Shown in pieces: positions 8,299-30,700 of a DNA stretch of 64,000 nt. The DNA comes from Aminobacter carboxidus. GTDB lineage: Bacteria > Pseudomonadota > Alphaproteobacteria > Rhizobiales > Rhizobiaceae. Within the stretch, counting starts at the first letter, position 1. The number at the start of each line of letters is the position of its first letter. Both the position numbers and the translations under genes were made by a program. The notes beneath the pieces were generated by a model that was given only the letters and a program-made list of their open reading frames with translations, was not told where the DNA came from and did not search any database. The stretch is from assembly GCF_014863355.1 (NCBI RefSeq), contig NZ_JACZEP010000003.1, forward strand, positions 62,001-126,000, given 5' to 3'.

Positions 8299-8637
8299 TC
8301 AGTCGATCTGCAGGACCAGCGCCGGATGCAGCTTCTTCAGGTTCGGCAGCGACTTGGATTGCCAGGGAATCTCTGAGCTGCCGCGCACGATCAGTTGCAC
8401 GTCGGGATGCTTGCGCACCTCGATGGTGAACTTTGCCAAAAGGTTGATGCCCGACGAGTTGAGAAACTCGAGGTCGGTCAGGTTGAGTGTCATGGTTTCA
8501 GGTTTTTCGGCCAGAATGGCAGTCATCACCGCCAGTACGGGCGCGTAGGCTTCCGACCCGGAAAGCCGCATGGAGCCATCGAAATAGACATCGCTGTTTT
8601 CCGTCCAGACGCGATAGTCGTCGGTTCTTACTTCCAT
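8299..8637 (-). CDS. STAS-like partner-switching regulator (slr1659-type)
   Basis: A 112-aa single-domain protein resembling anti-anti-sigma/STAS proteins of the slr1659 type. The core shows a central strand [16 protein letters not shown]; Ser61-Ser62 sit where SpoIIAA-type proteins are phosphorylated (DSSG-like), followed by helix [15 protein letters not shown]. It is the last gene of a minus-strand cluster, 19 bp after the HATPase-type gene. The arrangement suggests that the HATPase phosphorylates it and the SpoIIE-type phosphatase dephosphorylates it. Start: ATG 8637, with GAAGG 5 nt upstream; ATG 8649 is an alternative. The downstream partner it would bind is not evident here. Confidence 0.8.
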
Positions 8638-8656
8638 GGGCGCCTTCATTCTTTCG

Positions 8657-9214
8657 TTAGTGAGCCTGCGAGATCGGGATCGTGGCGTATGTCTCGACAT
8701 GAACCCGGTTGCTGGATTCTACCGGGCTGAAGATCCATGCCAATCGAGCGCCATAGTCGCTCATCAGCGTCAGCAATCCAAGCCCCGAGCCGGTAGCATC
8801 GGGATCGGCGGCATTTGCCTCGATCTGCTGGATCAGCAGGTCGCCCGGATCACCTATGGTAATCTGGGAGAGAAGCTTCTGAAACGTCACCGCGGTCTTG
8901 TCGGCGACGACGTTGGAAACCTTCACCTTGAAGTTGTCGGAATCCATCGATGCTTCGACGATAATCTCGCCCGGTTCGCGAAACTTCACGGCATTCTCGA
9001 TCAGCTCGTTGACCAAGTATCCGATGCTGTGGCGGACTTCCTTGTAGTCGTTGCGCGACGCGTGAAAAGGCAGCGCGAAAAGATCGGCGATGAAGTCCGA
9101 AGTCGTCGCGCAGTGGTGCCATTTCAGGTCCAGCGGCCCGTCAAACAACCTGACGCGGCTGATGTTGTCGCGCATGCCCATCGCAATGTCGGCCGGTCCA
9201 TACATAGTTGTCAT
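8657..9214 (-). CDS. HATPase (GHKL) anti-sigma-kinase-like protein (slr1658-type)
   Basis: A 185-aa cytoplasmic protein with a GHKL ATPase fold. The N box is [11 protein letters not shown] (residues 68-78) and the G2-type box is [10 protein letters not shown] (141-150). It has no dimerisation or sensor domain, as in anti-sigma-factor kinases (SpoIIAB/RsbW, BtrW) and the slr1658 group. It probably uses ATP to phosphorylate the STAS-like protein encoded just downstream, and possibly the STAS-like domain of the methyltransferase fusion. It starts 4 bp after the SpoIIE-type phosphatase gene, so the two are co-expressed. The G1 box (DxGxG) is not obvious; residues VSNVVADKT occupy that place, so activity should be treated as likely rather than certain. 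Confidence 0.82.
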
Positions 9215-9218
9215 GTGC

Positions 9219-11591
9219 TCACCTGTGCCTCATGACGACGAGTGTAATATCGTCATGTATCTTCCGTGTGCCGATGTATGCCATCAGGTCGTCGACAATG
9301 CCTGTCTTGATCTCTTCAGCACTGCTGCCATAGCGCGACCGTGCGCTTTCGCTGAGCCGGTCGAGGCCGAACAGCTTGCCGCCCGACCCTTCGGCCTCGG
9401 TCACGCCGTCAGTATGGAGCACGATGACGTCGCCGCTGCTGAAGGGGATGTTGCGGGTTGCCACGAAAGGCGAAATGTCGCGTTCGAGGCCGACCGGAAG
9501 GCCGAGGTCGAGCGTGTCGATCCGCTCGACCTTGCCTCCGGCGCGGACAACCAGAACCTCTTCATGCTGGCCCGACAGGACCAGGCGCTCGTCTTCATAG
9601 TCGAGGAAGGCCAGCGACAGGTGCTTGTCGGAGTTGGTGCGCTCCAGGTTCTTGAAGATTGCGCGGTTCAGCCGATCGAGGAACTGCCGTGGATTGTCTT
9701 CGCCGGTCTCCTGCAGCGCGCGCGCGACCGACTGCACCATCAACATCAGCACACCGCTCTCGAGACCATGTCCGGTGACATCGCCAATGCCTATCTTCAG
9801 GCGATGTCCGTCCTGCAGCACATCGTAGTAGTCACCGCCGACCTCGTCGGCCGGCCGCATGTAGGCTGCGATCTCGATGCCAGGGATCAGTGCGAGTTCG
9901 CGCGGCTTGGGCAGCACCATCATCTGTATCTGGCGCGCAACGTCGAGTTCGGCGCCAAGGCGCACGTTTTCGCTGCGCAGCTTTTCGTTGAGCGAAGAGA
10001 TTTCGACGTTGGCGTCTTCGAGATCCCTGGTGCGTTCATCGACCAGTTGTTCAAGGTTCTCGGTATGGAAGCTGATTTGCTCGGCCATGCGGTTGAAGGC
10101 CACGCCGACCTCGCCGACCTCGTCCTTGGACGGGATGTTGACGCGGACGGAATAGTCTTTCGCTTGCAGCCGCCGTGCAGCAGCAGCCAGGGCGCTGAGG
10201 CCTGCGGTGATACGCTTGGACAGGCCAAACACCGCGGCAAACACGATCATCAGCGAAACGATAATCGCCAGGAGCTGATAGAGCAGGATGCGGTTCGTCG
10301 CCTTCGAAATGCTGTCCTGTGCCGCAAACAGCGCGGCGTAGATCTCGCGCTCGGGCACAACGATGCCAACCGACATCGCCTGCTTTTCAATAGGCCCGGC
10401 ACTCCAGAGGTTCGTCGGCTTGAGCCCTTTCAGGACGACGATGTAAGGGACGTTTTCGCCCTTTTCTTGCAGCATGACATGCTGGATCACACCATCGTTG
10501 CTGCTGTTGAGGTCGAGGGTTGCGATGGCAGGCTGAGTGCTGGCGCGCAGTGACCGCTCCACGCCGGTGACCCCGTCGGCGGCCCCCTTGTCGCTCGAAG
10601 ACACCAGCCCGATCGTCGCTTCGCTCTTGGGGTTGATGGCCACCACGTTGCCGTTCGGCATCGTCAGGAAGCCGAAGCCGGTCTCGGCGATCTTGACGTT
10701 CTCGACGATCTCGGCGAGCTGGTCGAGCGTAATGTCGGCCCCAGCGGCACCCGCAACGCCTGCACGGTCGCGCGTCCACAGCGGATGGAAAAAGCTGACG
10801 ATCAGCTTGCCGGTGATTGCGTCCGTATAAGGCGCGGTCTGGGTGATGTCGTTGTCGGGGATGAAGCGCGACGCCGGATCGAGCGCCCATTTCTGCCACG
10901 ATCCATAGATGCCGGGGAAAAAGAACTCCCAGAACTCCGAGTTGTTATGGCCGGGATAGAGGCGATCGAAAGTCTGGGCCTGGTCGGTGTAAGGTGCGGT
11001 CCTGAAGATCGGCCGTTCCTTCGGGCCGATGTAATACATTTGCAGCTTTGACGAACCGCTGGTGAGCAGGCTTGGCGCGACGAGGTCGAGCACAGCACTG
11101 TTTTCGATCTCTTCCTGGACCGCCGGTAGCGGTTTGTGGTCGGGGCCAAGCAGATAACCCCAGACGCTGACCACGGACGGTGCGCCGGGCAGGTTCTGGG
11201 CCCACTGCCCTTTGGTGTCGTAGACGACCTGCACGGAAGCCGCGGACTGGTTCGCCAGCGTGGCGCCGACTCGTTTTTGCCGGTCGGGGTCGTCGATCTG
11301 TCCCTGAATGACGCCTGCCAGAGTCTTGACGTCTGCATGGACTCGGTCGAGCAGGAGGTCGACGCGCGCCGCGGTGGAGTCGGCATAAGACCGGATGTAC
11401 TCCTGGTTTGCCGTGGTCAAGCCGGCGCCGACCTCCGAGGTCGCGTCCTGCGACAGCCGCTGGACGTTCCACAGCGCCAGGCCGCCGCTCATCAGCAGGT
11501 CGAACAGCACTGCGCCGCCCACCACGAGCACGAACTTCGCCCGGAAGGAATGCAGGTCGAAACGAGGCGTATCCCGCGTGTCGGTACTCAT
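9219..11591 (-). CDS. Membrane SpoIIE-family (PP2C) protein phosphatase with dCache sensor and HAMP
   Basis: A 790-aa inner-membrane receptor phosphatase. Order of domains: TM1 (about residues 19-40, KFVLVVGGAVLFDLLMSGG); a large periplasmic sensor of ~370 residues with Cache-like features; TM2 (about 430-455, LAIIVSLMIVFAAVFGL); HAMP (about 455-508); a coiled coil (about 510-560); and a PP2C_SIG/SpoIIE domain to the end. Metal-binding phosphatase motifs are present: DEVGGDYYDV (~582), GDVTGHG, HTDGVTEA (~725) and HDDITLVV at the C-terminus. The layout matches SiaA/RsbU-like phosphatases that dephosphorylate STAS partners in response to an extracellular cue. It overlaps the methyltransferase gene by 4 bp (ATGA), which indicates coupled translation. 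The ligand is unknown. Confidence 0.9.
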   Translation of the reverse strand: MSTDTRDTPRFDLHSFRAKFVLVVGGAVLFDLLMSGGLALWNVQRLSQDATSEVGAGLTTANQEYIRSYADSTAARVDLLLDRVHADVKTLAGVIQGQIDDPDRQKRVGATLANQSAASVQVVYDTKGQWAQNLPGAPSVVSVWGYLLGPDHKPLPAVQEEIENSAVLDLVAPSLLTSGSSKLQMYYIGPKERPIFRTAPYTDQAQTFDRLYPGHNNSEFWEFFFPGIYGSWQKWALDPASRFIPDNDITQTAPYTDAITGKLIVSFFHPLWTRDRAGVAGAAGADITLDQLAEIVENVKIAETGFGFLTMPNGNVVAINPKSEATIGLVSSSDKGAADGVTGVERSLRASTQPAIATLDLNSSNDGVIQHVMLQEKGENVPYIVVLKGLKPTNLWSAGPIEKQAMSVGIVVPEREIYAALFAAQDSISKATNRILLYQLLAIIVSLMIVFAAVFGLSKRITAGLSALAAAARRLQAKDYSVRVNIPSKDEVGEVGVAFNRMAEQISFHTENLEQLVDERTRDLEDANVEISSLNEKLRSENVRLGAELDVARQIQMMVLPKPRELALIPGIEIAAYMRPADEVGGDYYDVLQDGHRLKIGIGDVTGHGLESGVLMLMVQSVARALQETGEDNPRQFLDRLNRAIFKNLERTNSDKHLSLAFLDYEDERLVLSGQHEEVLVVRAGGKVERIDTLDLGLPVGLERDISPFVATRNIPFSSGDVIVLHTDGVTEAEGSGGKLFGLDRLSESARSRYGSSAEEIKTGIVDDLMAYIGTRKIHDDITLVVMRHR

Positions 11592-12778
11592 AGCGGCTTC
11601 TGCCCCGATGCGGCCCAGATCGGCCAGCCGGCATACCCTTTCGGGTGGAGGGCTGCTGAGATGTGGTCCTTGAAACCTTGCCTGAACTGCTTGATGAACT
11701 CCCCGGAATCACCACGCTTTGCCGCCATGTCGCCGGCATAGACCTCTTCCCATGCCGCGATCATGTCGGCGAAGTCCTTCGGGTCGCCGTCCAGATTGGT
11801 CACCATGAACGACTCGACGCGTATGTCGTCGAAGCCGGCATCGGCCAGATAGCGCCGGCTCTTGGGCCCGAGCTCGACATCCATGTCGAAGTGTTCGAAC
11901 AGTTTCGCGACCTCGTTGTAGGTCCAGCGAATGCTTTCGGCGCGTGGTTCGCCCAGGCAGTGCGAGTTCTTCTCGTTGGTGATGTAGACCCGGCCCCCCG
12001 GCTTGCAGATCCGGAACAGCTCCTTGAGGATTTGCGCCGGGCGATTGAAGATCTGCAGCGAGTGCCGGCACGTCACGAGATCGAACTGGTCGTCATCGAG
12101 CAGCATCTCCGAGGCATCACCATAGGTGTATTCGATACCGGTGATGTCGAACTCGCTGGCGACCTTTCTGGCATAGGCCAGGCTCGACTTGGAGTGATCG
12201 AGGGCTACGATCCGCGATGGCTCGAATTCCTTTTGCGCCAGCACCGCGAAATCGCCGATGCCGCAGCAGATGTCGGCCATGACGATGCCCGGCCGCATGC
12301 CGTGGCGGGGCAGGATCGAGCGTTCGTGCCGCCAGGTCATCTTGGTCTGGGTGCGCAGGATGGGAATGAACCCGCCCTCTTCGAGGAAGCTTTGCCCGGG
12401 ATAGAACTCGCTGTCGTATTCCTCGACGGTGATGCCAGGCTCGATCTTGCTGAGACGGCCGAACTTGCGCGTCGTCCAGCCGACGACGCTGGAAGTGACG
12501 ACCACGAATCTCAGGTCCGGCCTGACCCGGCATGCGTCGATGATGACGCGCGCAAAGGCATGAAACGCAGTGTTGTTCATCTGCGCCAGCCGCCTGACGT
12601 TGACGTAAAGCACGCCGCGGACGCTCTCGATGGATTCCTTCAACAGCGCCAGGCTGGGCGCGAGCTCGTCGATCGTTTGCGGGCGAACCGAACCGGCAAT
12701 CGAAAATTCCTGGTTGTTCAGGTCAAAATGCGCCTTGAAGCGCCCAGCGATGCCGGAGGGGGAAAGATGTGCAGTCAA
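11588..12778 (-). CDS. STAS-like (slr1659-type) domain fused to a class I SAM methyltransferase
   Basis: A 396-aa two-domain protein. Residues ~20-135 align by eye with the small STAS-like protein at 8299-8637: VLYVNVRRLAQMNNTAF against [17 protein letters not shown], then a helix and RPDLRFVVVTSSVVGW against [16 protein letters not shown]. Asn69-Thr70 occupy the place of the usual Ser-Ser phosphosite. Residues ~160-370 are a Rossmann methyltransferase: motif I ADICCGIGDFAVLA (168-181), acidic loop EIVALDHS-like (RIVALDHSKSS), YGDASEM, and motif IV DLVTCRHSLQIF. A UbiE-type small-molecule or protein methyltransferase is suggested, but the substrate is unknown. It sits between and overlaps (4 bp each side) the ATPase-fold gene and the phosphatase gene, so it is an integral part of the switch. 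Confidence 0.82.
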   Translation of the reverse strand: MTAHLSPSGIAGRFKAHFDLNNQEFSIAGSVRPQTIDELAPSLALLKESIESVRGVLYVNVRRLAQMNNTAFHAFARVIIDACRVRPDLRFVVVTSSVVGWTTRKFGRLSKIEPGITVEEYDSEFYPGQSFLEEGGFIPILRTQTKMTWRHERSILPRHGMRPGIVMADICCGIGDFAVLAQKEFEPSRIVALDHSKSSLAYARKVASEFDITGIEYTYGDASEMLLDDDQFDLVTCRHSLQIFNRPAQILKELFRICKPGGRVYITNEKNSHCLGEPRAESIRWTYNEVAKLFEHFDMDVELGPKSRRYLADAGFDDIRVESFMVTNLDGDPKDFADMIAAWEEVYAGDMAAKRGDSGEFIKQFRQGFKDHISAALHPKGYAGWPIWAASGQKPL

Positions 12779-13290
12779 TTTGCCAAGCCCCCGAGCGGAA
12801 GGTCGACGACGATCTTGACCATGTCGTCATCGACCTCTTCAAGTCGAAGCGTGGCGTTGTAGTTAACGGTCAGTTCCAGAAGCATCATGTCGCGGCTGGG
12901 GGCAACATCGCCCGACAACGAGCTCAGATAGCGCGCCTGCCGGTCGGCACCCTGGACCCTCGCAACGGCAGCCTCAAGGAAGGTGTGCTCTTCCCGGCTG
13001 CAGGCAAACGTCAACTCGATCCGGTCGGTCTCGCCAAGGCGAGACAGCCTGCATTCAAGTGCGCCCCCAGAGTGACGTGTCCTGAAGGTAACCTCCAGCA
13101 ATTCATTGAGTGCAGATGAAAAGAGATTCGAAAAAAGGACTGAGTCCGGCCGGTTATGACTGATCGTACGCGCCAGATAACTCGAAATGTAGTCGCAATG
13201 CGCCCAATTCGAAAGGAAAGATGCGATCTCCATGTCGACCTGGATCATTGTGCGAAAACTTGGTTCCGCATTCGCATCTTTCGTAGGCAT
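12775..13290 (-). CDS. Degenerate GHKL-ATPase-fold-like protein of the partner-switching cluster
   Basis: A 171-aa soluble protein. Its centre (SSALNELLEVTFRTRH) resembles the N box of GHKL ATPases. The helical N-terminus followed by a C-terminal sheet (LLELTVNYNATLRLEEV, MVKIVVDLPL) fits that fold. No G1/G2 glycine boxes are visible, so it may be inactive in ATP hydrolysis, comparable to SiaB-like or other non-canonical members. Start: ATG 13290 with AAGAGGG 5 nt upstream. It overlaps the STAS-methyltransferase gene by 4 bp and is the first gene of the tightly linked five-gene set. A role as a dedicated partner of the STAS-methyltransferase is inferred from position only. Confidence 0.6.
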   Translation of the reverse strand: MPTKDANAEPSFRTMIQVDMEIASFLSNWAHCDYISSYLARTISHNRPDSVLFSNLFSSALNELLEVTFRTRHSGGALECRLSRLGETDRIELTFACSREEHTFLEAAVARVQGADRQARYLSSLSGDVAPSRDMMLLELTVNYNATLRLEEVDDDMVKIVVDLPLGGLAN

Positions 13291-13310
13291 GTCACCCTCT
13301 TGCCGTTCTG

Positions 13311-13334
13311 GCCGAGCAATTAGCATCGCTCGGC
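13311..13334. promoter_or_regulatory. Inverted repeat in the leader of the partner-switching operon
   Basis: The arms GCCGAGC and GCTCGGC are separated by 10 bp, about 20 bp upstream of the first gene (start 13290). Extending the arms to GCCGAGCAAT / ATCGCTCGGC leaves one mismatch. It could be an operator or a 5'-UTR hairpin; which one is not decided by the sequence. Confidence 0.45.
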
Positions 13335-13438
13335 AAATTTGCGGTGTCCGGTCCGAAGTCGGTCTGCCGTGACACTATCTGTATGTATCGTCTGCGTCGC
13401 CTGCCCCGTCGAGGCAAGCTAGCGGGTGTTGCCTGTCT

Positions 13439-15202
13439 TCATGTTCGGTCTTGTTCTTGCGGCGCTTTCAGCTCTGCGGGTGACCGGTCCGCAAACTCGC
13501 CCGTCGCGTCCGCTCCCATCGGCCGCCCAAGGAAGTTGCCCTGCAAGCAATCACAGCCTTCGTCGATCAGCCAACGTGCCTGGCCGGCCGTTTCTACCCC
13601 CTCTGCGGTGACGCTGATACCCAGTCCGTGTGCCAGGCTCATGACCGACCGGACAATGGCCTGGCTCTTGCGGTCGGCAACCAGGTCCTTGATGAAGTAC
13701 TGGTCGATCTTCAGCGTGTCGAACGGAAAATTCTTGAGATAGCTCAGCGACGAATAGTGGGTGCCGAAGTCATCAAGCGAGATCCGGATTCCCAGGACAT
13801 TCAGCGTGTTGAGCGTATCCAGATTGTCGACGGTCTGCTCCAGCAGAACGGTTTCGGTGATCTCGAGTTCAACGCGGTCGGCGCGGATACCGACCTTGTC
13901 GATGATCTGCGCCACGGTATCGGTGAGCGAGCCGCTCAGGAACTGCGCCGGCGACAGGTTCACCGCAACGTTGAGCGAGGGTGGCCAGGTCATCGCCTGG
14001 CGGCAGGCTTCCTCAAGCACCCAGCGGCCGATGTCGTCCATCAGACCATCGGCCTCGGCGATCGGAATGAACACGTTTGGCGGAATGAGGCCAACCTCTG
14101 GATGGTGCCACCTCAGCAGCGCCTCAAAGCCGATGACCGTCGATGGTGGGCGAATGAGCGGCTGATACTCGAGATAGAGCTCCTGCCGCTCCAGCGCCAT
14201 GCGCAGGCTTCGCCTCAGGTTCTCCCGCTGCTCCAGCAGCAGCATCATCGAGCGGTTGAAGGTGCGGGCGCAGCCACGGCCATCGCGTTTGGCCGCGTAA
14301 AGGGCGATGTCGGCCGCCTTCATCAGCTCTTCACTCTCGACCCCATGCTGAGGGCCGAATGCGATGCCGACGCTGGCGCCGACAAAAAGCGGGATGTCGT
14401 TGATGACGAAGGGCGCCTTGAAGGCATCGACAATCGCCTGCGCCAGCCGTTCGGCAGCCATAGGCTGTTGTTTGCCGGCCTGGATAACCGCAAATTCGTC
14501 GCCGGCGTATCGATAGGCGGCATCACCGTCCTGCAGCGCGCCGCGGATCCTGTTTGCCGCAAGCTGCAGCAAGGTGTCGCCGGTTCCATGGCCGAGCGTG
14601 TCGTTGACCGATTTGAAATCGTCGAGGTCGATCTGCAGCAAGGCCGACCTGTCACGGGAATCGCCGCTTTCCGCCAGGATTTCGTCCAGGCGCTCGCTGA
14701 AGCGGCGGCGATTCTGCAAACCGGTCAGCGCGTCATATGTCGCCTGATGCTGCAGCAGCTTCACGCGGTCTGCTTCTTCGGAGGCGGCACGACCGTCTAG
14801 CCCTGTTTCCGCCGACTCGATGATGCCGACGCCATCAGCCATTCCGAAGCACAAGATCGTTCCCGCCGGCTGCCCAGACAAAGCCTTGAGCTTGATTCTC
14901 GTCGACGAACCATCGCGCGCGGCAAGCTGCATCGCGGCGCGAAGCTCGTTTTCGCCAAAATTCGGATAAATCTCCCAAGCCAACGCGCCTGTGGTCATGG
15001 CGTTGCCGCGAATGCTTTTCAGCGTGGCCGAGCAGTCGGTCAGCCGGAAGTCGTGGTCATAAAACGAAAAAAGATCGGTGGTGTTTGCCAGGAAGCTCGC
15101 AAGACGTGCATCGCGAATCACGGAGAGGTTCGAGGGCCCGAGCCCAACGCCTCTTTTGCCCTCAGCCTTCGGATACGCAAACCAATTCCAAAAGCGGTAC
15201 AA
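13439..15202 (-). CDS. Cyclic-di-GMP protein with GGDEF and EAL domains
   Basis: A 587-aa cytoplasmic protein. The N-terminal ~150 residues are a PAS-like/unknown sensor. The GGDEF domain follows (DALTGLQNRRRF, then YRYAGDEFAVI, so the signature is AGDEF, with the first Gly replaced). Residues ~330-570 are an EAL domain with FEALLRWHHP, VNLSPAQF, ITETVLLE, DDFGT, LKIDQYF and AEGVET, that is, all the usual metal- and substrate-binding residues. The loop after DDFGT reads HYSSLSYL where Gly is more common. It could make, degrade or only sense c-di-GMP. The start is a TTG at 15202, supported by TAGGGAG 8 nt upstream; an in-frame stop excludes longer forms. It lies 148 bp upstream of the partner-switching operon in the same direction and may belong to it. 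Confidence 0.9.
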   Translation of the reverse strand: MYRFWNWFAYPKAEGKRGVGLGPSNLSVIRDARLASFLANTTDLFSFYDHDFRLTDCSATLKSIRGNAMTTGALAWEIYPNFGENELRAAMQLAARDGSSTRIKLKALSGQPAGTILCFGMADGVGIIESAETGLDGRAASEEADRVKLLQHQATYDALTGLQNRRRFSERLDEILAESGDSRDRSALLQIDLDDFKSVNDTLGHGTGDTLLQLAANRIRGALQDGDAAYRYAGDEFAVIQAGKQQPMAAERLAQAIVDAFKAPFVINDIPLFVGASVGIAFGPQHGVESEELMKAADIALYAAKRDGRGCARTFNRSMMLLLEQRENLRRSLRMALERQELYLEYQPLIRPPSTVIGFEALLRWHHPEVGLIPPNVFIPIAEADGLMDDIGRWVLEEACRQAMTWPPSLNVAVNLSPAQFLSGSLTDTVAQIIDKVGIRADRVELEITETVLLEQTVDNLDTLNTLNVLGIRISLDDFGTHYSSLSYLKNFPFDTLKIDQYFIKDLVADRKSQAIVRSVMSLAHGLGISVTAEGVETAGQARWLIDEGCDCLQGNFLGRPMGADATGEFADRSPAELKAPQEQDRT

Positions 15203-17980: not shown

Positions 17981-18529
17981 CTATTGGATGGCTTGCAGCT
18001 TGTCGATCGCGGCGGTGAAGCCTGCCAGCGACACCGGAATGGCAACCGGCTTGCGCGTCACCGATTCCATGCCGACATTCAGATTGGTGCCGGCTTTCAT
18101 CGCCGTGATCAGTTCCGGCGTCAGTGGTGCTGCCGCATAAGCACCGTTCTGGTCGCTCGTCTGAATGGCGACGACTACCTTCTCGCCCTGGTCGATCTGG
18201 TACGAGGCGCCTGACGGCAGGAACAGGCCGTGTGGCAGAGCAAGCAACATGGCAAGACCGCCCTTGTCGTTTTCCTTGCGAATAGTGACCGTCAACACGC
18301 GCTGGCCAGTCTTCGACTCGGTGAGATTTTGCGACACCTGGCATTGTAGTTCGTTGATCGTCGCACCGCTGGCGCAGTTGACTGCCCAAGGGTTTGCCTC
18401 GGTCGGCTTGGCCTCGGCGGGCTTAGCTTCCTGGGCAAATGCGCCGCCGGCAAACAACAAGGCGAGCGCAGCAGCGCTGATGTTGATAACTCGAGCGGAC
18501 GTTGTTGTTCGCACTGGGATGGGGCGCAT
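17981..18529 (-). CDS. Invasion-associated locus B (IalB) family protein
   Basis: A 182-aa exported protein with a signal peptide (hydrophobic INISAAALALLFAGGAFA, cleavage before QEAKP) and a short Lys/Ala/Glu/Pro-rich linker. The IalB domain includes the paired cysteines of the family (WAVNCASG and LQCQVSQN) and the conserved stretch LALPHGLFLPSGASYQID. IalB proteins are periplasmic or envelope-associated; in Bartonella the locus was linked to erythrocyte invasion, while in free-living rhizobia the role is unclear. Start: ATG 18529. It is convergent with ftsK and divergent from the giant adhesin-like gene, about 200 bp away. Confidence 0.88.
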   Translation of the reverse strand: MRPIPVRTTTSARVINISAAALALLFAGGAFAQEAKPAEAKPTEANPWAVNCASGATINELQCQVSQNLTESKTGQRVLTVTIRKENDKGGLAMLLALPHGLFLPSGASYQIDQGEKVVVAIQTSDQNGAYAAAPLTPELITAMKAGTNLNVGMESVTRKPVAIPVSLAGFTAAIDKLQAIQ

Positions 18530-18729
18530 TTTTCTTGCCTTCGCTGGGGATCGACTGGTTCGACTTGAGTCAACTTAGGCTGAAAGAAGCGCGGGTTCTG
18601 TTGCTCTACTGCAACATGACTTCTTTTTATGCCAATGCACGCATTGGTGGCAGAAAATCCTCTTGCAAGCCGCGCGCATTGGTAGACCTATCAGCAAAAC
18701 CAAGAACGCCCCCTTGGGATGGATCTTTG

Positions 18730-21700
18730 ATGCACTCGCGTTTACTGCCCAATAACGCAAGGCATACCGATGCGGCTACCGCTCTGGCGAGCGGACCGCA
18801 AGTTTCGGCCGAGTATAGACTGACGCGGCGCGCCAGAAGCCTTTTGCGGACATCGGCCCTGTCAACAATCGCCTTTGCCTTGTCTGGCATGGCAGCTTAT
18901 GGCGGGCAGGACGGGCTGTGGCAGCCGCAGGTCCGCGCCATCGTCGGCGCCAACAACGACGGCGCCACCGCCGCGCTTGAGGGTTTTGTTCCGCTCAAGC
19001 AGACGGCGGAATCAGTCCTGTTCCTCGATGTCAGGGCCAAACACGATTTCGAAGACGGCTTTGGCCAGGATTTTGGCCTCGGCATACGCCGGATCGTCAA
19101 CCTTGACGTGATGCTTGGCGGCTACGCATATATCAATACCCAGAGACAAGACGGACACCAGTTCACCGGGGCGACGCTGGGCGTCGAGGCGATCACGGCG
19201 AATTTCGACGCGCATGTGAACGTCTATCTGCCAATCAGCGGAGACCGGGCCGAACAATCGGTGAATTCGAGCCTGTCGATGGTCGGCAACCAGTTGCTCG
19301 AGCAGATAGCGGTCATCGACCGGCGCAACTATGCCGCCTGGGGCATCGAGGGCGAGATCGGCGCACAGGTGCCGGTTGAGCTGCCCGAGGACCATTCGCT
19401 GCGGCTCTCCATCGGCGCTTATCATTTCGGGGATCCCGACGGCGACGACGACAACATCACCGGCGGCAAGGCCGGCTTCGAATATGCTATCGGCGATGTC
19501 TTCGGCAGCGGGGCGTCCGTCGCCTTCACCGGCGAGGTACGCAACGACAACCGCGATGACACCCAGTTCGCCGGCAGCGTCCGGCTGACGATACCGTTCA
19601 ATGCCGATGCAGGCGGCGTTGAGGAGCAAGGCGACAGCGGCGAGCCGGTCTATGCCGTCAGCGACGCGTTGCGTAAACGCGTTAACGAGCGGGTGCGCGG
19701 CGACATCGGCGTTCGCATCGAGGGCGACGAGAAACTCGCCAGCTCGACGACACGCGTGGCGATCAATGCCGCCACGGGCACGGCGTTTGGCAAGTTCTTC
19801 TTTGCAGATGGTGCCAACACGCTAGGCCTCGGCACATTCGGTGATCCGACCACGCTGGACGACGCGGTCAGCGATGCCGGCGTCAACGGATTTGTCGTGG
19901 CGCTTGGCGGCAGCGGCAACCTTTTGACGGCAGGCGTGACGCTGGCCAACGGCCAGACGGTCATCGGCGGTGGCGAAAGCGTTACCGCCCAGCTCTTCGG
20001 CGGCGGCACCGGCAACTACAATCTCGGCGGCAGCAACGGCACCATCGCCGGCACCAACCCGGGCAACAATGTCATTACGCTCGGCAACGGCAATACGCTC
20101 AGGGGCATCACCGTCACCGGCGGCGCCGACGGTATCTTTGGCAACAACATCAACGGCGCGACGCTGACCAATGTGACCGTCAGCGGCACGGGCGGCCACG
20201 GCGCCAACTTCACCGGCAGCTCGACCGGCATCAGAGGTTCCAATTTCACCTCGACCGGCAACGGCCTCGACGGTCTGCACATCGCAGGCAACGGCACCTA
20301 CAATTTCACTGGCACCACGCTGCTGCAGGACAATGGCGACGATGGCCTGGATATCGCCGGCCAGGGCACCTACACCTTCGCCATTCTGAACGCGCAGGAC
20401 AATGCGGACGCCGGCATCTATGTCGCCGGCACCTCTGTTTCGGGCAGCTTCACCACGTCAGGCGGCACGGTGTCGGGCAATGGCGGCATCGCCGTCTTCA
20501 TCGACCCCATCACCGCTCACGTAACCCTGACCTCGATTACCCACAATGGCGGGACCTCGGGCGTCGTGCTCGATAACGTTGCCGGCAGCTTCACCGTCAC
20601 CGGCCAGACCACGATCTCAAACACGTCGGGCCCGGCGATCGACATCGTCAATTCGCCGGCGTCGATCCGCTTCGGCGACGTCAACATCACCAACCCAGGC
20701 GGCGACGGCATCGCGTTTGCCGGCGTCAATGCCGCCATTGTCGCCGGCAACATCGTCATTTCTGGATTGGGCGTCGGCACCGGCCTCGATTTCTCCGGCA
20801 GCAGGACGAATTTCACAGCCCAGTCGTTCAACATCACAGGCACCGGCGCCGGCTCGATCGGCATCGATCTTGCCCAGACCATTGGCGGCTCGTCGATCGT
20901 CATCACCAATGGCGGGGTCATCGCCAATGTCGGCACCGGCGTTCGCCTCGGCATTTCCGGTTCGCTGGTCAATTCGGCCAACGCACAATTCAGCTTTGGC
21001 GGTGGCTCGATTTCAGGCGTCACCGCGTCGCTCGACGCACGCGGCCTGAACCAGACGCTTGGAACCTACGCCTTCGGAACGACAACCTTCGGCGGGCCCC
21101 AGCTCTTCGACGCCCAGAACCTGATCTTCGTCGGCGCTTCGGCCACCGGATCGGGCACTGGCTCGTCGTTGCTGGACCTGGCTTCGATCGCCACCGCCGA
21201 CGCCAACACTGACGGCACTGCAATCTTCGTGCTGGTCAACCGCGGAACCGATATCGACGACACTGACGGCTTCTCGCTCAGTGCCGGCCAGACCCTCGCG
21301 TCGTTCGGCAACGGCCGACAGTTCTCGCTCGGCGGCGTGCCGATCAATGTGACCGGCACGAATGTCCAGCACAGCACCACCATCTCGGACGCAGGTGGTG
21401 CCGCCACGCTCACCAACACCGGCAGCGGCGACACCGTCACCCTGGCCAACAACACCTCGCTGCTCGACGTCGACCTGTCCAATGCAGGTGGCGGCAACGG
21501 CGTTTTCGGCAACAACGTAACCAACGTCACGCTTACGGGTCTCACGGTCTCCGGTGCTGACCTCAACGGCCTGGTGTTTGCCGGAACCAGCACCGTTTCC
21601 GGCAGCAACCTGACGTCGTCAAACAATGGCTCCACAGGCCTTTCGATCCAGGGCGGCGGCACCTACGTTTTCACTGGTACCACCACGCTTGCGGACAACG

Positions 21701-24700
21701 GTGGCAGCGGCCTGGCGATCAGCGGCGGCACAGGTGCCTACAGTTTCGACACGCTCAACGCCACCGGCAACGGCGGTAATGGAGTTGGTGCTTCGGGAAC
21801 ATCGGCCGGCGAACTGTCGATTGGCAACGGAACGATTTCCGGCAATGGCTTGACGGGCTTCCTGGCAAGCGGCATCGGGCTTGACGTAACTTTGGCCAGC
21901 TTGAGCCAGACCAACGGCTCGACTGGGATAAGCCTCGCCGGCGTTTCCGGCGACTTTGCCGTGTCCGGCACCACGACGATCTCTGGCACAGCCTTCAACG
22001 GCATCGTGATCAGCGGCAGCTCGGCAACGGTCAGCTTTGCTGGCGCAACCACCATCACCAACGCCGGCAACGGCGTTTCGCTTGGTGGCAACTCGGGTGC
22101 GATCAGCTTCGCCGACGTGACAATCAGCCAACCTGGCCAGAATGCCATTGACGTCCAGGGCACCAATGGCACGATAAGTTTCCAGAACATCGACATCACC
22201 AACCTGTCGGCCACCAGCACCGGGCTCGACCTGTCGGGCAGCAGCTCGACCTTCACCGTCGCAACGCTCGACATCTCCGGCCTTGGCGGCACTTCAACCG
22301 GTATCGACCTCTCCGGCACGACGGGCGGCATGGTGTCGATCGGCAGCGGCGTCATTTCGGGCGTCGGCACCGGCGTCCAGATGGGCGATCACGGCGCGGT
22401 TGCGGCGAGCGCGAACACCACCTTCTCGTTTGGCGGTGGCTCGATCACCGGCACCGTCGCCTCGCTCGATATGCGTGGGCTTCTGGTCGGCAATGGCACA
22501 TATGCCTATAACACCACGGCACTGGTCGGGCCGCAGCTGTTCGACACAGCCAACGTCATCTTCGTCGGATCCGGCAACACCGGCTCCGGTGACGGCTCCA
22601 GCATCGGCAACCTGATCAATGCTGCTGCGGCCGACGACCTGACTGTCGACGCCAACACGATCTTCGTCCTCGTCAAGTCGTCGGCTCTCGACGTCATCAA
22701 TACAGACGGTGATGGTTTCACCTTGGCCAACGGCCAGTCGGTCGTGTCTTTTGCCAACGGCGCGACTGTCGATCTGGGCGCACCACCGGCCAATGTCACC
22801 GGCGCCAATGTCGCTACCGGCGCAACCCAGGGGGATCCTTTCAGCCACGGCGGAGCGACGCTCAACAATGCCGCCGGCAGCGCCATCAACCTTGCCAATG
22901 GCAACCTCATCCAGAACCTGACCGTCAGCAATGGCGGCTCGGGCGCGGCCATCGACGGGACAAGCATCTCAGGCCTGAACGTCGCCGGCGTAACGATTGC
23001 CAGCGCTGTCACGGGCATCGACCTGAGCAGCGCGACTGGCACGATCAGCATTGCCAATCTCAGCATCCAGTCGGCGCAAACCGGCATCTTGCTGGCGAAC
23101 TCGGCCGCAACGGTCAACTTCACTGGCACCAGCACTGTCGGTGGCGTCACGGGCACGGCTCTGTCGTTCAACAACTACAGTGGCACGGCGACATTCGCCG
23201 ATTTCAACATCACCGGCGCGGCTACGGGCATCAACATCGCCGGCGGCTCCACCGGCACGTTGAACTTCGATGCGGCGAGCTCGATCGCCAACACGTCGGG
23301 TGTGGCGTTCAACATCGACACCGCTACGCCCAACCTGATCTACAACGGCACCATCAACCAGACCAGCGGCGCAAGTGCTGTCCGCGTCAATGCGATGACC
23401 GGCGGCAGCGCCACCTTCGGCGGTCTTATCACCGCCAGCACTGGCGGCGCCAACGCCATCAACCTGACCAGCAACACAGGCGGTACGATCAGCTTCAACA
23501 ACGGGCTGGCGATCACCACGACCACGGGTATCGGCTTCAACGCGACCGGCGGCGGCACCATCAACGTCGCGGCAACGGCAGGCACCGAGACGATCAGTAC
23601 TGATACTGGCCAGGCCATAAACCTCGATGGCGTCACGATTGGCACGGGTGACGTGTCGTTCGACAGCATTACGACAGGTATCACAGCCTGGACGGCGCTC
23701 AATTTCAACGCTGTCGGAGGTGGTACGTTCTCTGGTGGCACCGTCACGATTGCCGGTACCACCGGTGTCGGCGACGGCATCCAGATCGTGGCATCCTCGG
23801 CGACATTCAATTTCGCTTCGGCAAAGATCGACAACACTGCTGGCCGCGGTATCGCCCTCACTGGCGCCAACGGCAACGTGACCTTCACGACGGTCGACAT
23901 CGATGGCACGGCTGGGCGTGGCATCGACGTCAGCGGCGCCATCAACCTCGTCAGCGTTGGTGGCGGCACGATCGGTGCGAGCTTGGCTACCGGTGGCCGC
24001 AGCATCAACATTGATGGCCAGGCAGCCACGAGCACGATCTCGCTGACCAATCTGGCGGTCACCAGCGTGGCCGACGCCTTGCTCATCCGCAATTCGGCCG
24101 GCACCATCACGATGACCGGCGGTTCGCTCACTCAGAGCGGCCTGGGCAACGCGCTCGATATCGAAGACAGCTCGGCCGCAATCTCGGTCGGCGCCACGAT
24201 CTCGCACGCTGGCTCCGGCCATGCGGTCGAGATCGATGGCACGTCGGGCAACACCACCATCTCGGGCAATGTCACGGCGACCGGCGGCGCGCAGCTGTTC
24301 AGCATCGGCACGACAACCGCACCGACCGGCGGCACGATCAGCTTCACCGGTTCGTCGCTGACCGCGACGGGCGGTGGCGGTGCTTTGATCGCTGGCCTTG
24401 GCGCGGGGGCGAGCTTCAATGCTGCAGCGGCGATTTCGATCACCAGCCCGCTCGCAGCCGGCCTGTCGGTCGTCAACGCCGCCGGCAGCGCCACATTCGG
24501 CTCCGTCACCGTCAGTGGTGCGGCGACCGGCATCGGCCTGTCCGGCAACACCGGGACGATTGCCTTCGGCGCCACCAGCGTGACCAATGTCGGTTTGAAC
24601 CAGACTGGCGTCGCCATTTCCGGCACCAATGCCGGAACTCTGTCCTTCGCCAGCCTCGGCATCGCCATGACCGGCAACGACGCGACCGGCATCAGCTTCG

Positions 24701-27700
24701 CCAATGCGGTGATCAACGGCACCATCACCGCGACCGACTTCGATCTCACCAGCGTAAGTTCCACCGGCACGACGGCGGTCAACCTTTCCAGCACCACCGG
24801 TACCGGCACGATCCAGCTCGGCGACGCGGGCGCGCCCGGCAACACCACGGCTGCCACCATCGGCGGCAGCGGCGCTGGGCCGGCGGTCGGCTTCCAGTTC
24901 ACCAGCACGACGGCCGTCAATTTCATCTATGGCGATGGTGAGGGAAGTGTCGACAAGCTGTCCACGGTCAAGGCCGTCGACATCATGGCTTCGCCAGGGG
25001 GTGTCTTCCCTGCTGCCGGAACCTACAACTTCAAGGACGTCGACGGCGCCAATGGCGGCTTTGTCGGCGACCTTTCCGAGGCGCAGGGGCCGACAGTCTA
25101 TTACGTCGACAGCCAGGGCGACGGCAATGGAACCGCGGCGAACCCCGGATCGATCGCCGGCGCCGAAGCCTCGGGCGCCGACGTCATCGTATTCATCGAC
25201 ACCACGGTGAACGGCACAAGCGACTTCATCGACATGATGCAGGCGCAGCACAATGACGGTGCGAACAACACCTTCAACCTCGCCGATGGCCAGGTGCTCA
25301 TCGGGCTCAAGGCCGGAGAATCCATCGACACGGCGCCACTGGGCGCTGTCGGCGGCGGTTTGGGCAATGCGTTCCAGTTCAGCGGCATCAGTTCGTCGAC
25401 GATCATCGATGCGCCTGCTGGCATCGACACCGTGCTGCCGACCCTGACCACCGCCATTGGCAATACGATCAGCCTCGGTGCCAACGCCAGTATCGTCAAC
25501 GTCATCGTTGCCAATACCGGTGCGACCGGGATTGGTATTTACGGATTCGACATCGCCAAGCTCATCCTGAGCCGCGCCACGATCTCCGGTGGCGGAGGAG
25601 GCGCGCTATCGCTCGACGACGGCGGTGCCGACAGCGAGGTTGCGCTGTCCAATCTGATCCTGTCGGCAACAGGCGGCAACATCGCCTCGATCGACGGAAC
25701 AGGTGTGGGTACCGGTGTGATGAAGGTCAGCGCCTTGTCCGATATCACACTGCTCGGCAACAATGGCGAGATCGGTGGTTTTGCCTTGAGTGGCGTCGTC
25801 TTCGATGCCAACGCGGCGACAGCTGGGATGGATCAGGTCGACGGCGGCGCGTTTGTCGCTGGCACCACGACCAATCGTGTCGGCGGCTACGGCCTCATCC
25901 TGGACGATACGAGTTCGGGCAATCTGAAGTTCGACACCACCAGCATCGCCGTCCAGCAGGCATCGAACCCGATCTTTGGCGGCGATGTCGCGCTCGGCAT
26001 CTACGCCAACCCCCTCGATGGCTCCAGCAGCACTCTGGACTTCGGCGCCGCGACGATCGACGTCGCCGGCGGGGGATCCGCCGGCGGCTTCTTCAATGGC
26101 GCGCATCTGCTGGTCAACAGCACCAACAGGATCGGTTTTTCGGGCGCCACCAGCTTCACCGGCACGAACGGTGCTGGCGGCATCTACGCCAACAGGGCGG
26201 CAGCCGTTGGCGGCGAACTGTTCTTTGCCAGCGCCAGCAACACGTTCAATGTCGACGAAGCCGCGCTGGGCATCTCCAACGTCGCAGTCACCAATGGTGC
26301 CGGCGGCTCGGCGCAGTTTGGTGCTGTCACTGTCACCGGCGGCCAGAACGGCATCAAGCTGCTCAACGTGATCGCTTCGCCGACGATACAGTTCAACGGC
26401 CCGGTGACGATCAGCGATACCACTCTCAACGCCATCGATCTCACCAGCGGCCTCGTCAATGGAACATCGGTGACATTTGCCGGCGCGGTTTCGATCACCA
26501 ATGCCAATGGCGGCGGTGTCAAATGGCAGCCAGCGGTCGGCAGCACCAATACGCTGACATTCGCTGGCGCGCTCGACATCCAGAACAATGGCGGCATCGG
26601 TTTCTATGCCAGGAGCGGCAATGTCGTGCTCTCCGGTGTCGGTGCGAAGAACGTGACCACGACCAATGGACGCGCGCTGGTGGTCGATGGCGCGAATGTC
26701 AGCGACGGTGCCGCGGGCGCCGGTGTCTTCAACAACATCAGCGCGAGCGGCTATCTGAATGGCGGCGGCATCGACATCAATGCCGGATCGGGTGCGATGC
26801 GGTTTGCCGGAACCGTCAATCTGACACCTCTGGCAAGTCAGGTCGGTACAGCCTTCGGCATCAACATCGGCGGCGGCACCACCGGCACCTACACCTTCGC
26901 CGGCACCACTACCATCAATGGCGGCAGCGACGACAACGGCGTCTATGTCAGGAACACAGGCGCAGGCCTGACCATCGACTTCACCGGCCCGCTCGACGTC
27001 ACCACGGGCCTCAATGCGATCGACCTCAACGACACGACCGGCAACCTCGCCTTCTCGATCCAGCATGCGGCGAGCAGCCTGACCACCACCACCTCGACCG
27101 GGACCGCGTTTCTGGCTGTCGGCGGCAGTGGCGCGATCAGCAGCACTGCTTCCATCTTCAGCGACGGTCTCGGTGCGTCGATCAGCGGCCGCACGGGCGG
27201 AACCATCACTCTGTCGGGCAACATCACCCAGGCGCTCCGTGGCGTCGAGGTCAATGGCGGCAGCGGCGGCAGCGTCGTCTTCTCCGGCACGCAGAAGATA
27301 CTCAACACCGGCACCACCAACGCGGTGCGTGTGTTCTCGCCGACTGCGGTCAGCTTCATCAATGGCGGCCTCGTTATCAACACGACGACGGGCGCCGGCA
27401 TCAGCGTCAACGGTACCGGTGGCACAGCGAACGTCACCGTTTCGGGCGTCGGCAACACGGTCAGCACCGGATCCGGAACGGGTGTCGATATTGTTGGCGG
27501 CGTCGGCGCTACGAATGTCGCCATAAATGCCGCGGTCACTTCGACGACCGGCCTCGCCGCCAATGTCCAGGGCGTCACCTCGGGCACTGTCACGCTGTCG
27601 GGCAACCTGATCGCGGCCGGCATCGTGGTGAACTCAAGCACCGGCGGCACCATCGACTTCTCAGGCGCGACGAAGAGCCTGACCTCTGGACTCGCGAATG

Positions 27701-30700
27701 CCGTCAACCTGACCAACAACGCCGGCGCGACCATCAACTTCAGCAATGGCGGTCTGGCGATCAATTCCACCAGCGGTACCGGCTTCAATGCCAGCGGTGG
27801 TGGCACTGTCACTGTCGGCACAGGCAGCAACGCCAACACGATTGCCACGACGACCGGGACGGCTTTGAGCCTCAATGGCGCCACCGTGGGCGCCGCTGGC
27901 CTGAACTTCGCGACTGTTTCGGCAAGTGGCGCAGCAACCGGCATTGTGCTGACCAATGTCGCGTCGAGCGGTGGCGGCGCCGTTGCGCTCGGCACCGTCA
28001 ACCTGCAAGGCATCACGGTGCGCGGCGTCGACATCTCCGGCACGCTTGGCGCAGCGATCTCCTTCAACGACCTCGATATTGGCCTGAACGGTTCGGCCAT
28101 TGCCTTTGACCTCAATGGCGCGACTATCAATGCCGCTGTCACGGCCAACGATTTCGACGTCACCAATTCGGCGGCAGCCGGCACATCGATCGGCGTCGAT
28201 CTTCGTGGTGCCACCGGTGGTCAGACCGTGCGCCTGGGCGACGCGGTTGCGGGCGGCACCAGCTCGAGCATCGCCGGCGTCAACACCGGCATCTTCCTCA
28301 ACAGCGCGACGAACCTTGGCTTCACCTATGGCGATGGCGAGTCGGCGACCGACCAGCTTTCGACGATCGGTGCCAATGTCGCCATCGATGCCAGCAGCGC
28401 GCCTGCGGCCGGCAGCTACAATTTCCAGGACGTCAACTTCCAGGCGAGCCCGGGCCTCGGCTTCGGCATCGGCAAGGTCTACTTCGTCGACAGCGACGGC
28501 GCCACCGGCGGTGGCAACGGCTCGGGCACCGACGGCAACAATCCAATGACGCTGGCAGCGGCTGAGGCGGTCGCTGGTGTCAACGACATCATTGTGCTGA
28601 TCAACAACGGCAGTATCATCACCGCGGCCGGCACCAACGCTGACAACACGCTCAATCTCGCAGCCGGCGCGCAGGTGCGCGGCTTCGGCAATGGCGCGAT
28701 CAACCTGGCCCTGACCGTGCCGAGCGCGATCCAACTGGCCAGCAATTCGATCTCCATCGCAGCGGTCGGCACCGGCGCTGCGACACTGACCAGCAGCGCC
28801 GGCAGCAATATCATCACGCTCGGCGCCAGCGGCAACGTCATCGACGGCTTCATCCTCGACGGCAGCCCGGCGAACGTGGCGCGCGGCATCAAGGACAACG
28901 GTACCGACGGCGCCTCCGGCACGTCTGTCACCAACATGACGATCAGGAATTTCCTGACCGCCGGCATCGAGATCACGCCGTCCACCAATACGACGATCAG
29001 CAACGTCGTGTTCTCGGGCAATGGCTCGGAGGCGATCCTCAACGCCTCCAATACCACGATCACCAACGTGACGAGCACCGGGGCGACGGGCATCGCCTTC
29101 GATATCCGCGATGCCACCGGCACGACGACGCTGAGCAACATCTCGATCTCAGGCGCCGGAGCTGGCGGCATTTCCTTCGGCGGCGTGTCCGGCCCTGCCG
29201 GCACGATCACCGGTACGAATGTCGATATCGGCGGGGCAAACGCCCTTGCCGTCACCGGCGGCAACGCCACGATCAGCTTCGATGCCGCAAGCTCAATTGC
29301 CAATATGTCGGGTACGGCGGTTGCCATCACCAACCGCACCGGCGGCAGCTTCACATTTGCTGGCTCGGTTGTCGCCAATGGTGCCGCCAGCGGCATCAGC
29401 GTCTCGGGCGCGACGGCCGCAAGCGCGGTCAGCTTCACCGGCGCCGTCGATCTCGGCACGACGACTGCCATGACCGGCACTGCCGTTTCGGTCAACAACA
29501 ACGCCCAGGCCTCAACGGTCAGCTTCGCCAATCTGGATATAGTCACCAGCACCACCACTGGTTTCTCGGTGAGCAACGGCGGCACGGTCAACGTCACCAC
29601 CGGCACGATCAATGCCACGTCAGCGCAGGCCATCATGCTCAACGGCGTAGCCGCCAACACCACCTTCATCTCGGTCAATTCGATCGGCGGAACTAACAAT
29701 GTCGGCCTGACCAACGTTGCCGGCACCGTCAATCTGGGTTCGGGCGCGCTTTCGGGCGCCTCGGGCGCGGCGTTCCTGGTCAGCGGCGGTTCGGCGAATG
29801 TCGACTATTCCGGCACCATCACCAAGACGACAGCCGGCAATGTCGTCAACATCGCCAGCCGCACCGGCGGAACGTTGGCGCTTTCGGGCAACATCAGCGC
29901 GACGGGCGCAGTTGCGAACGGCATTTCGGTGGCCGGCAACAGCGGTGGCGCGATCACCTTCTCGGGTTCGACAAAGACCCTGACGACGGGTGCGAATGCG
30001 GCAGTCAGTCTGGCGGGCAACGCCGGCGCGACGATCAACTTCAACAATGGCGGGCTTGCCATCTCGACGACCTCAGGCGCGGGCTTCAGCGCCACGGGCG
30101 GCGGCACGATCAACGTGCTGGGCTCGAACAACACGATCTCGTCCGCGACCGGTACGGCGCTCAACGTCGCCAACACAACGATTGGTGCGAGCGACCTGAC
30201 CTTCCGCAGTATCTCGTCCAACGGCGCAGTCAACGGCATCGTGCTCAACGCCACCGGCGTTCTGGGCGGCCTGACGGTGACCGGCGACGCTGGTGGCAGC
30301 AACAATGGCTCGGGCGGCACCATCCAGAACTCGACGGGCACTGGCGTCCTCCTGACCAGCACCCAGTCGGTCAACCTCGGCTACATGAATATTCTCAATA
30401 GCGCCGATGACGGCATCGGCGGAACATCGGTGACCGATTTCGCACTCAACCGTTCGACGCTGACCAACAATGGCAATGCGATCGGCGATGCGGGTATCGA
30501 CTTCGGTGGAGTGGGCACCGTCTCACCCAACGGGTTGTTCGGCACGGCAAGCATCACCAATTCGACGATCACCACGTCCTACGAAAAGAACGTCTCCATC
30601 CGCAATTCGAACGGGACACTGGCGCTGACGGTCAGCAACAGCACCTTCAGCAACACCTCGGCCAAGGTCGACAGCGACGACGGACTGTTCCTGGAAGCCG

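What the first reader, a model, noticed from the sequence alone, without database searches (positions are those of the whole stretch)
8299..15202. Partner-switching cluster with a STAS-like domain fused to a methyltransferase
Five genes overlap or nearly touch: degenerate ATPase-fold protein, STAS-like/methyltransferase fusion, dCache-HAMP-SpoIIE phosphatase, HATPase, STAS-like protein. A GGDEF-EAL gene lies just upstream on the same strand. Sensor phosphatase plus HATPase plus STAS protein is the core of SiaABC and BtrUVW. Here there are two ATPase-fold proteins and two STAS-like domains, so the cluster may be a duplicated switch in which one arm controls methylation instead of a sigma factor or a cyclase. 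A phosphorylation-gated methyltransferase linked to c-di-GMP would be a new output type.
Basis: partly seen in the sequence, partly recalled or inferred. Interest (0 to 1): 0.88.

Follow-up and report, generated by a model that had tools for sequence, protein, structure and literature searches.

The report
Methyltransferase wired into a partner switch
Many soil and plant-associated alphaproteobacteria carry a conserved five-gene protein switch in which a working kinase-phosphatase pair sits beside a seemingly dead copy of itself fused to a methyltransferase, which suggests that this type of switch can control a chemical reaction rather than gene transcription.

Summary
On the minus strand lie GGDEF-EAL, a SiaB-fold protein (A1), a STAS-methyltransferase fusion, a dCache-HAMP-SpoIIE phosphatase, a HATPase (A2) and a STAS protein (S2). 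A1 and the fusion's N-terminus are diverged relatives of A2 (slr1658) and S2 (slr1659). The order A1/STAS-MT/PP2C/A2/S2 is intact in the 80 loci kept of 188 found and in 13 of 13 further loci. GGDEF-EAL is adjacent in 79 of 80 and 5 of 13: a lineage-dependent neighbour.

One arm looks live: A2 keeps the N-box Asn and S2 its Ser in 81 of 81. The other looks dead: A1 never has that Asn (0 of 78), and the fusion's phosphoacceptor position is Asn in 78 of 81. The methyltransferase is thus probably gated by protein exchange (S2 competing for A1), not by its own phosphorylation.

Unexpectedly, methyltransferase and sensor domains form a block exchanged several times between resident switches: both flanks reject the sensor-defined clade, the methyltransferase does not. 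Substrate and biochemistry are unknown. A new variant of SiaABC-like partner switching with an enzymatic output.

The parts
13439..15202 (-). GGDEF-EAL protein, 587 aa (TTG start); accessory neighbour
   Evidence: Pfam GGDEF and EAL; AGDEF, EAL and DDFG in 80/80, EGVE in 79/80 aligned rows; adjacent in 79/80 scanned relatives, 5/13 further loci
12775..13290 (-). A1: SiaB-fold ATPase relative without N-box Asn (likely pseudokinase)
   Evidence: NF047703 41 bits, below cut-off; hhalign to A2 E 5.8e-6; AF2 pLDDT 87, best PDB match SiaB 6kko; Asn position V69 I6 M2 L1, 3 gaps, of 81
11588..12778 (-). STAS-methyltransferase fusion, 396 aa (TTG start)
12416..12739 (-). STAS-like domain of the fusion (residues 14-121), Asn at the phosphoacceptor position (residue 69)
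   Evidence: NF047705 34 bits, below cut-off, hhalign to S2 prob 95, AF2, residue counts
11591..12334 (-). class I SAM-dependent methyltransferase domain (residues 149-396); D169, G173, G175, D194, D221 81/81
9219..11591 (-). dCache-like sensor, HAMP, SpoIIE/PP2C phosphatase, 790 aa
   Evidence: Pfam; SiaA-like by NF038263 over 434-788, E 3.1e-42, far below cut-off; D587, D604, D728, D780, D781 81/81
8657..9214 (-). A2: HATPase kinase, slr1658 superfamily, intact N-box
   Evidence: NF047703 184 bits over cut-off; E70 and N74 81/81, G144 81/81, G146 80/81
8299..8637 (-). S2: STAS protein, slr1659 superfamily, NSSG phosphoacceptor loop
   Evidence: NF047705 146 bits over cut-off; N62 S63 S64 G65 81/81 (numbering of that alignment, in which Met is residue 3)
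10065..12253 (-). region matching the exchange block seen in relatives: MT residue ~176 to PP2C residue ~509 (boundaries approximate)

Best explanation
This is a SiaABC-like partner switch whose output is a methyltransferase. Live arm (inferred from families): A2 phosphorylates S2 on the Ser after Asn in its NSSG loop (S63 in the numbering); when the dCache-like sensor is triggered, the PP2C domain removes the phosphate. Second arm (shown to be degenerate in sequence): A1 keeps the SiaB/SpoIIAB fold and well conserved first two helices but lost the N-box Asn, so it should bind STAS domains without phosphorylating them; the fusion's STAS domain lost the phosphoacceptor, so it should stay in a binding-competent, unphosphorylatable form. 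The likely logic is that A1 holds the methyltransferase through its STAS domain and dephosphorylated S2 competes for A1, releasing (or re-seating) the enzyme. Kinase activity and client holding, both done by one protein in RsbW or SpoIIAB, would thus be split between A2 and A1. Shown: anatomy, relatedness, conservation, residue loss, co-occurrence. Inferred: binding, competition, direction of the effect, enzyme activity.
For: Gene order intact in 80/80 kept relatives and 13/13 further loci. In a class sample of 385 genomes A1 and the STAS-MT N-terminus ring in the same 4 genomes, and S2-type STAS is over cut-off in the same 4. A1~A2 and STAS-MT~S2 by profile with crossed controls low. A1 best structural match is SiaB from the SiaB-SiaC complex. 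A2 N74 and S2 S63 81/81; A1 no Asn in 78/78 ungapped; fusion acceptor Asn 78/81; in 16 rows found without the scan's peptide patterns it is Asn 13, Met 2, Ser 1. A1 conservation is highest in its N-box helix. SiaC T68 phosphorylation by SiaB and removal by SiaA is published (PMC7647112, abstract and one section read).
Against: No binding or activity data. A1 keeps the catalytic-base Glu (E75, 78/78), so some activity is not excluded. Thr70 is present in 53/81 fusions, two Mesorhizobium fusions and one further locus have Ser69. The scan pattern QMNN[TM]AF favours Asn at 69. S2-to-STAS-MT identity is only 20-31% in direct tblastn hits. Which pairs bind cannot be told: partial correlation of distances A1-STAS is 0.15 in 77 loci and 0.41 in 22 thinned; in the 77, A1 and A2 correlate most with GGDEF-EAL (0.53, 0.49). 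Other parts of A1 are conserved too (last strand 0.79, helix 4 0.77). No complex was modelled.
Confidence: 0.45

Rival explanations
1. One reading: A2 (or A1) phosphorylates the fusion's STAS domain directly, and PP2C reverses it, so methylation is phosphorylation-gated.
For: Thr at position 70, next to the acceptor position, in 53 of 81 rows; SiaC is phosphorylated on a Thr; Ser69 in L060 and L062 and in L142.
Against: Aligned with SiaC N67-T68-S69 the acceptor position is Asn in 78/81; position 70 is Ala, Met or Leu in 28/81. In 16 rows found without the scan's patterns position 69 is Asn 13, Met 2, Ser 1 and position 70 is Val 8, Thr 6, Met 1, Leu 1.
Confidence: 0.12
2. A1 and STAS-MT form a constitutive complex and the methyltransferase is an unregulated partner enzyme of the operon; the STAS domain is only a dimerisation or localisation handle.
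For: Both switch residues are lost; the methyltransferase part is the most conserved part of the cluster (mean pairwise distance 0.17 against 0.23-0.49).
Against: In the 385-genome class sample A1 and STAS-MT occurred only where S2-type STAS was over cut-off, and the five-gene order is kept in 93 loci (at least one contig, L080/L145, counted twice).
Confidence: 0.22
3. The second arm sits on the input side: A1 acts like RsbT on the phosphatase, or the methyltransferase modifies the receptor or makes or removes its ligand, like an adaptation system.
For: The sensor and the methyltransferase domain are exchanged together against the rest of the switch; partial correlation of their distances 0.63-0.69.
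Against: The two segments are physically adjacent, so linkage in one recombination tract suffices; only 7 fixed methyltransferase differences separate the two classes in Mesorhizobium; a dCache domain is expected in the periplasm, out of reach of the enzyme (general knowledge, topology not tested here).
Confidence: 0.15

Closest known systems
SiaABCD of Pseudomonas aeruginosa
   Same: HAMP-PP2C phosphatase, HATPase-fold kinase and STAS-like phosphoprotein; A1 model matches SiaB best; SiaD is a diguanylate cyclase and here a GGDEF-EAL gene is often adjacent
   Different: Kinase and STAS protein belong to slr1658/slr1659 and are below the SiaB/SiaC cut-offs; extra pseudokinase and STAS-methyltransferase; GGDEF-EAL not universal
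slr1658/slr1659 superfamily regulators (NCBIfam NF047703, NF047705)
   Same: A2 and S2 are over the curated cut-offs
   Different: A1 and the fusion are diverged relatives below cut-off; the 4 papers that name slr1658 or slr1659 were seen as a listing only, so their content is not judged
RsbU-RsbV-RsbW and SpoIIE-SpoIIAA-SpoIIAB
   Different: No sigma factor among the six genes; the client is fused to a STAS domain; kinase and holder seem to be separate proteins
UbiE/MenG-like class I methyltransferases
   Same: Rossmann SAM-binding domain and motifs
   Different: Scores far below equivalog cut-offs (64 bits against 216); substrate not inferable

Membership tests
slr1658/slr1659 superfamilies (A2, S2) | score over the curated NCBIfam cut-off (100 bits) | tested here: met
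   184.3 and 146 bits; also 161-167 and 145-148 bits in two distant loci
slr1658/slr1659 superfamilies (A1, STAS of the fusion) | score over the curated NCBIfam cut-off (100 bits) | tested here: not met
   41.1 and 34 bits; so related to, not filed as members
SiaABC system | SiaA, SiaB and SiaC models over cut-off | tested here: not met
   NF038263 145 of 700 bits, NF038262 23.5 of 85, Pfam SiaC 13 of 24.5: works like, not a member
SiaABC system | kinase phosphorylates and PP2C dephosphorylates the STAS protein | not testable with these tools
   residues kept in A2, S2, PP2C; no assay possible
GHKL serine kinase (A1) | N-box Asn for Mg-ATP | tested here: not met
   0 of 78 ungapped rows have Asn at position 79
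GHKL serine kinase (A2) | N-box Asn and GxG box | tested here: met
   N74 81/81, G144 81/81, G146 80/81
Phosphorylatable STAS anti-sigma antagonist (fusion) | Ser/Thr at the SiaC T68 / SpoIIAA S58 position | tested here: not met
   Asn 78, Ser 2, Ala 1 of 81; the window has Asn
STAS fold (fusion residues 14-121) | structural match to a solved STAS domain | tested here: inconclusive
   element order and pLDDT fit and profile match to S2, but the methyltransferase filled the fold-search lists
Class I SAM methyltransferase | Pfam model over cut-off, SAM motifs conserved | tested here: met
   65.6 bits, cut-off 21.2; D169, G173, G175, D194, D221 81/81
c-di-GMP output system | cyclase/esterase gene always part of the module | tested here: not met
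   79/80 but 5/13

The most novel reading that the evidence does not exclude
A partner switch with split duties: a live kinase-STAS-phosphatase arm drives a dead copy of itself (pseudokinase plus non-phosphorylatable STAS domain) that carries a methyltransferase as output, and the sensor and the methyltransferase form a matched input-output cassette that is traded between bacteria while the switch stays, for instance because the enzyme makes, consumes or adapts to the molecule sensed.
Probability: 0.25. Interest if true: 0.87.

Novelty: new variant of a known kind. Interest (0 to 1): 0.7.

Why it matters
The partner switches I know of (recalled) end in sigma factors, a cyclase or unknown targets. 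A widely conserved switch that ends in a methyltransferase would add an enzymatic output, and the paired loss of catalytic residues in kinase and substrate is a natural test of whether dead copies act as competitors. The fusion gene lies on pSymB of the laboratory strain Sinorhizobium meliloti 1021, with A1, A2 and S2 relatives beside it (L150), so it can be tested genetically at once. The exchange block gives a lead to ligand and substrate.

Tried and rejected
Viral contigs: 7 pattern matches, none a relative. Solved-structure sequence search: A1 no match at E<=1, A2 nothing convincing, S2 weak RsfB and SpoIIAA-like matches, fusion only methyltransferases. Foldseek and VIA lists for the fusion were filled by methyltransferases, so the STAS part was not independently matched by structure. 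The methyltransferase C-terminus modelled poorly (segments 268-311, 314-333 and 371-396 under pLDDT 50), so no substrate pocket reading. Co-evolution of distances did not show who binds whom. Literature: four term combinations with STAS, anti-anti-sigma or partner switching and methyltransferase gave 0 papers; slr1658/slr1659 gave 4 papers, listing only; guessed S. meliloti locus tags gave none or 6 papers, not opened and not mapped to this locus; the pSymB record carries no gene table there. The held library misses most subscription journals, so absence there is weak. Considered and rejected: chance adjacency (order kept in 93 loci), fusion made by a frameshift (no early stop in the fusion in any of the 80 loci).

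Limits: one search kept the 80 best of 188, so 80/80 is for the closest relatives, and its two peptide patterns (QMNN[TM]AF, TQTKMTW) include the loop whose residues I count. Of 15 distinct non-own hits were fetched with flanks (G645 and G931 were not). Class B was defined from sensor identity after the sensor-methyltransferase correlation had been seen, so tree p-values are not fully pre-planned; the sensor and flank trees are quick trees, with long branches L072 and L114.

Full report
Anatomy. In transcription order: GGDEF-EAL (13439-15202), A1 (12775-13290), STAS-methyltransferase (11588-12778), dCache-HAMP-SpoIIE phosphatase (9219-11591), A2 (8657-9214), S2 (8299-8637). The window looks like Aminobacter: the closest named relatives, Aminobacter anthyllidis and A. 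ciceronei, match the fusion at 95-96%, six Aminobacter plasmid records hold it at 95-96%, and in A. aminovorans pAA01 the flanks (FtsK, phytase-like gene) are the same as here.

Conservation of the module. In the genus, 5 of 9 other genomes have the full fusion, one has a fragment at a contig end, 3 only weak methyltransferase matches; the six genes keep their order in the five, and in two of them the FtsK and phytase-like neighbours were not found in the 14 kb fetched. A scan of one genome for each of 84,980 species found 188 stretches that encode a relative; in all 80 that were kept the five genes A1, STAS-MT, PP2C, A2, S2 follow in order, and GGDEF-EAL precedes them on the same strand in 79. 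They include Mesorhizobium, Phyllobacterium, Ensifer/Sinorhizobium, Rhizobium, Neorhizobium and Labrys. Sampling wider with the fusion's STAS domain: 12 of 297 genomes of the order, 4 of 385 of the class, 6 of 398 of the phylum (own genome included in each; some genomes shared between samples). Of the 15 distinct non-own hits 13 were fetched with flanks; all 13 have the five-gene order; GGDEF-EAL was seen in 5 and not in 8. In the same 385 class genomes the A1 profile rings in exactly the 4 that have the fusion. The slr1659 model is over cut-off in the same 4, and rings below cut-off in 48 others. Three of the four are one distant genus, so this is two lineages, not four independent cases.

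A live and a dead arm. Over 81 aligned rows (window plus 80) A2 has the N-box Asn (N74) in 81 and S2 has N62-S63-S64-G65 in 81. PP2C Asp residues 587, 604, 728, 780 and 781 are invariant. In A1 the Glu of the N-box is kept (78 of 78 ungapped) but the Asn is Val 69, Ile 6, Met 2, Leu 1. In a second alignment that adds distant rows it is Val, Ile, Leu, Thr or Met in 24 of 24. SiaC is phosphorylated on T68 of its N67-T68-S69 loop by SiaB and dephosphorylated by SiaA (PMC7647112, abstract and one section read; PMC8457831, passages). By the motif, that loop corresponds to N62-S63-S64 of S2; S2 aligns with N68-N69-T70 of the fusion. Position 69 of the fusion is Asn 78, Ser 2, Ala 1; position 70 is Thr 53, Ala 26, Met 1, Leu 1. 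A caution: one of the two peptide patterns asks for Asn at 69 and Thr or Met at 70, so these counts lean that way. In the 16 rows that came from other searches, position 69 is Asn 13, Met 2, Ser 1 and position 70 is Val 8, Thr 6, Met 1, Leu 1. So the fusion is unlikely to be phosphorylated at the known site. The equation with SpoIIAA S58 rests on passages that name S58 as the site (PMC11418112, PMC8256260); its loop sequence is recalled.

Most likely mechanism. By analogy with RsbW/SpoIIAB, where one protein both phosphorylates the antagonist and holds the client, here A2 would do the first and A1 the second. The client is a methyltransferase carrying a permanently unphosphorylated STAS domain. 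Signal at the dCache-like sensor activates the phosphatase, S2 becomes dephosphorylated and competes for A1. A1 conservation is greatest in its N-box helix (majority fraction 0.87); helix 1 and the last strand follow at 0.79, helix 4 at 0.77, the former lid is at 0.66. This is as expected if a STAS-binding face is kept while nucleotide binding is lost, but it does not single that face out; that the first two helices form it is recalled from SpoIIAB structures. Binding, competition and sign are inference.

An exchange block. While testing co-variation I found that pairwise distances of the methyltransferase domain follow those of the phosphatase's sensor (partial r 0.63 in 77 loci, 0.69 in 22 thinned) more than those of any other part. 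In 12 of 80 loci the sensor is of a second class, 47-51% identical to the window over PP2C residues 20-200, while the PP2C domain, A2 and S2 stay alike. Between 21 class A and 9 class B Mesorhizobium loci the identity gap is 0.00-0.02 in A1 and the STAS domain, 0.01 at MT 136-175, 0.07-0.11 from MT 176 to its end, 0.12-0.43 through the sensor, 0.08 at PP2C 460-509 and 0.01-0.05 beyond, in A2 and in S2. On a 33-locus subset (21 of 69 class A rows, all 12 class B), the sensor tree needs one change of class (quick tree); the methyltransferase tree (176-396) needs two and does not reject a single class B clade (p-AU 0.53; 24% of bootstrap trees have it); the joined switch parts need five, at least four by starred branches, and reject it (log-likelihood 467 lower, p 0.0002); each flank alone rejects it too (146 and 308 lower, quick trees). 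The plain reading is repeated recombination of a contiguous block from inside the methyltransferase to the HAMP region. It may be mere linkage with a fast-evolving sensor: only 7 methyltransferase positions are fixed between the classes in Mesorhizobium. It could also mean that input and output must match.

Verdict. The duplicated-switch reading is supported, the phosphorylation-gated reading is not, and the c-di-GMP link is a lineage-dependent neighbour. No paper on a STAS-methyltransferase partner switch was found in the held library by four searches. It is a new variant of a known kind, with an enzymatic output for which I found no study.

Noticed in passing
window 10065-12253; L042-L116 (lists): Methyltransferase domain plus dCache-like sensor are co-exchanged as a block between otherwise resident switches (two classes, several changes).
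   Followed up: yes
L151 7489-8004 (A. aminovorans pAA01, AA2016_RS29735): The gene at the A1 position is named 'ubiquinone biosynthesis methyltransferase UbiE' in the plasmid record; the window's A1 has no methyltransferase hit in Pfam or NCBIfam, so the name was probably carried over from the neighbouring fusion.
   Followed up: partly
L184 7084-7434 (G000:C9): Orphan second slr1659-type STAS protein in the window's genome (105 bits) with Ser in an NSQG loop; the slr1658 model rings only at A1 and A2 in that genome.
   Followed up: partly
L121-L123, L136, L137, L139 upstream of the module: Six of the 8 further loci without GGDEF-EAL show another SpoIIE-type phosphatase gene on the opposite strand upstream; in the four scanned it is 295-332 aa (L121, L136, L137, L139), in L137 next to a STAS protein.
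   Followed up: partly
L139 8353-12339: In one locus the module neighbours type VI secretion genes (ImpA/VasJ-like, VipA, VipB).
   Followed up: no
L073 and L091 (Ensifer aridi LMR001); H23 and H40 (S. meliloti GR4): Some strains carry two copies of the fusion on different contigs or plasmids.
   Followed up: no
window 18502-31569 +: A 4355-aa ORF of repetitive, adhesin-like sequence (by eye).
   Followed up: no
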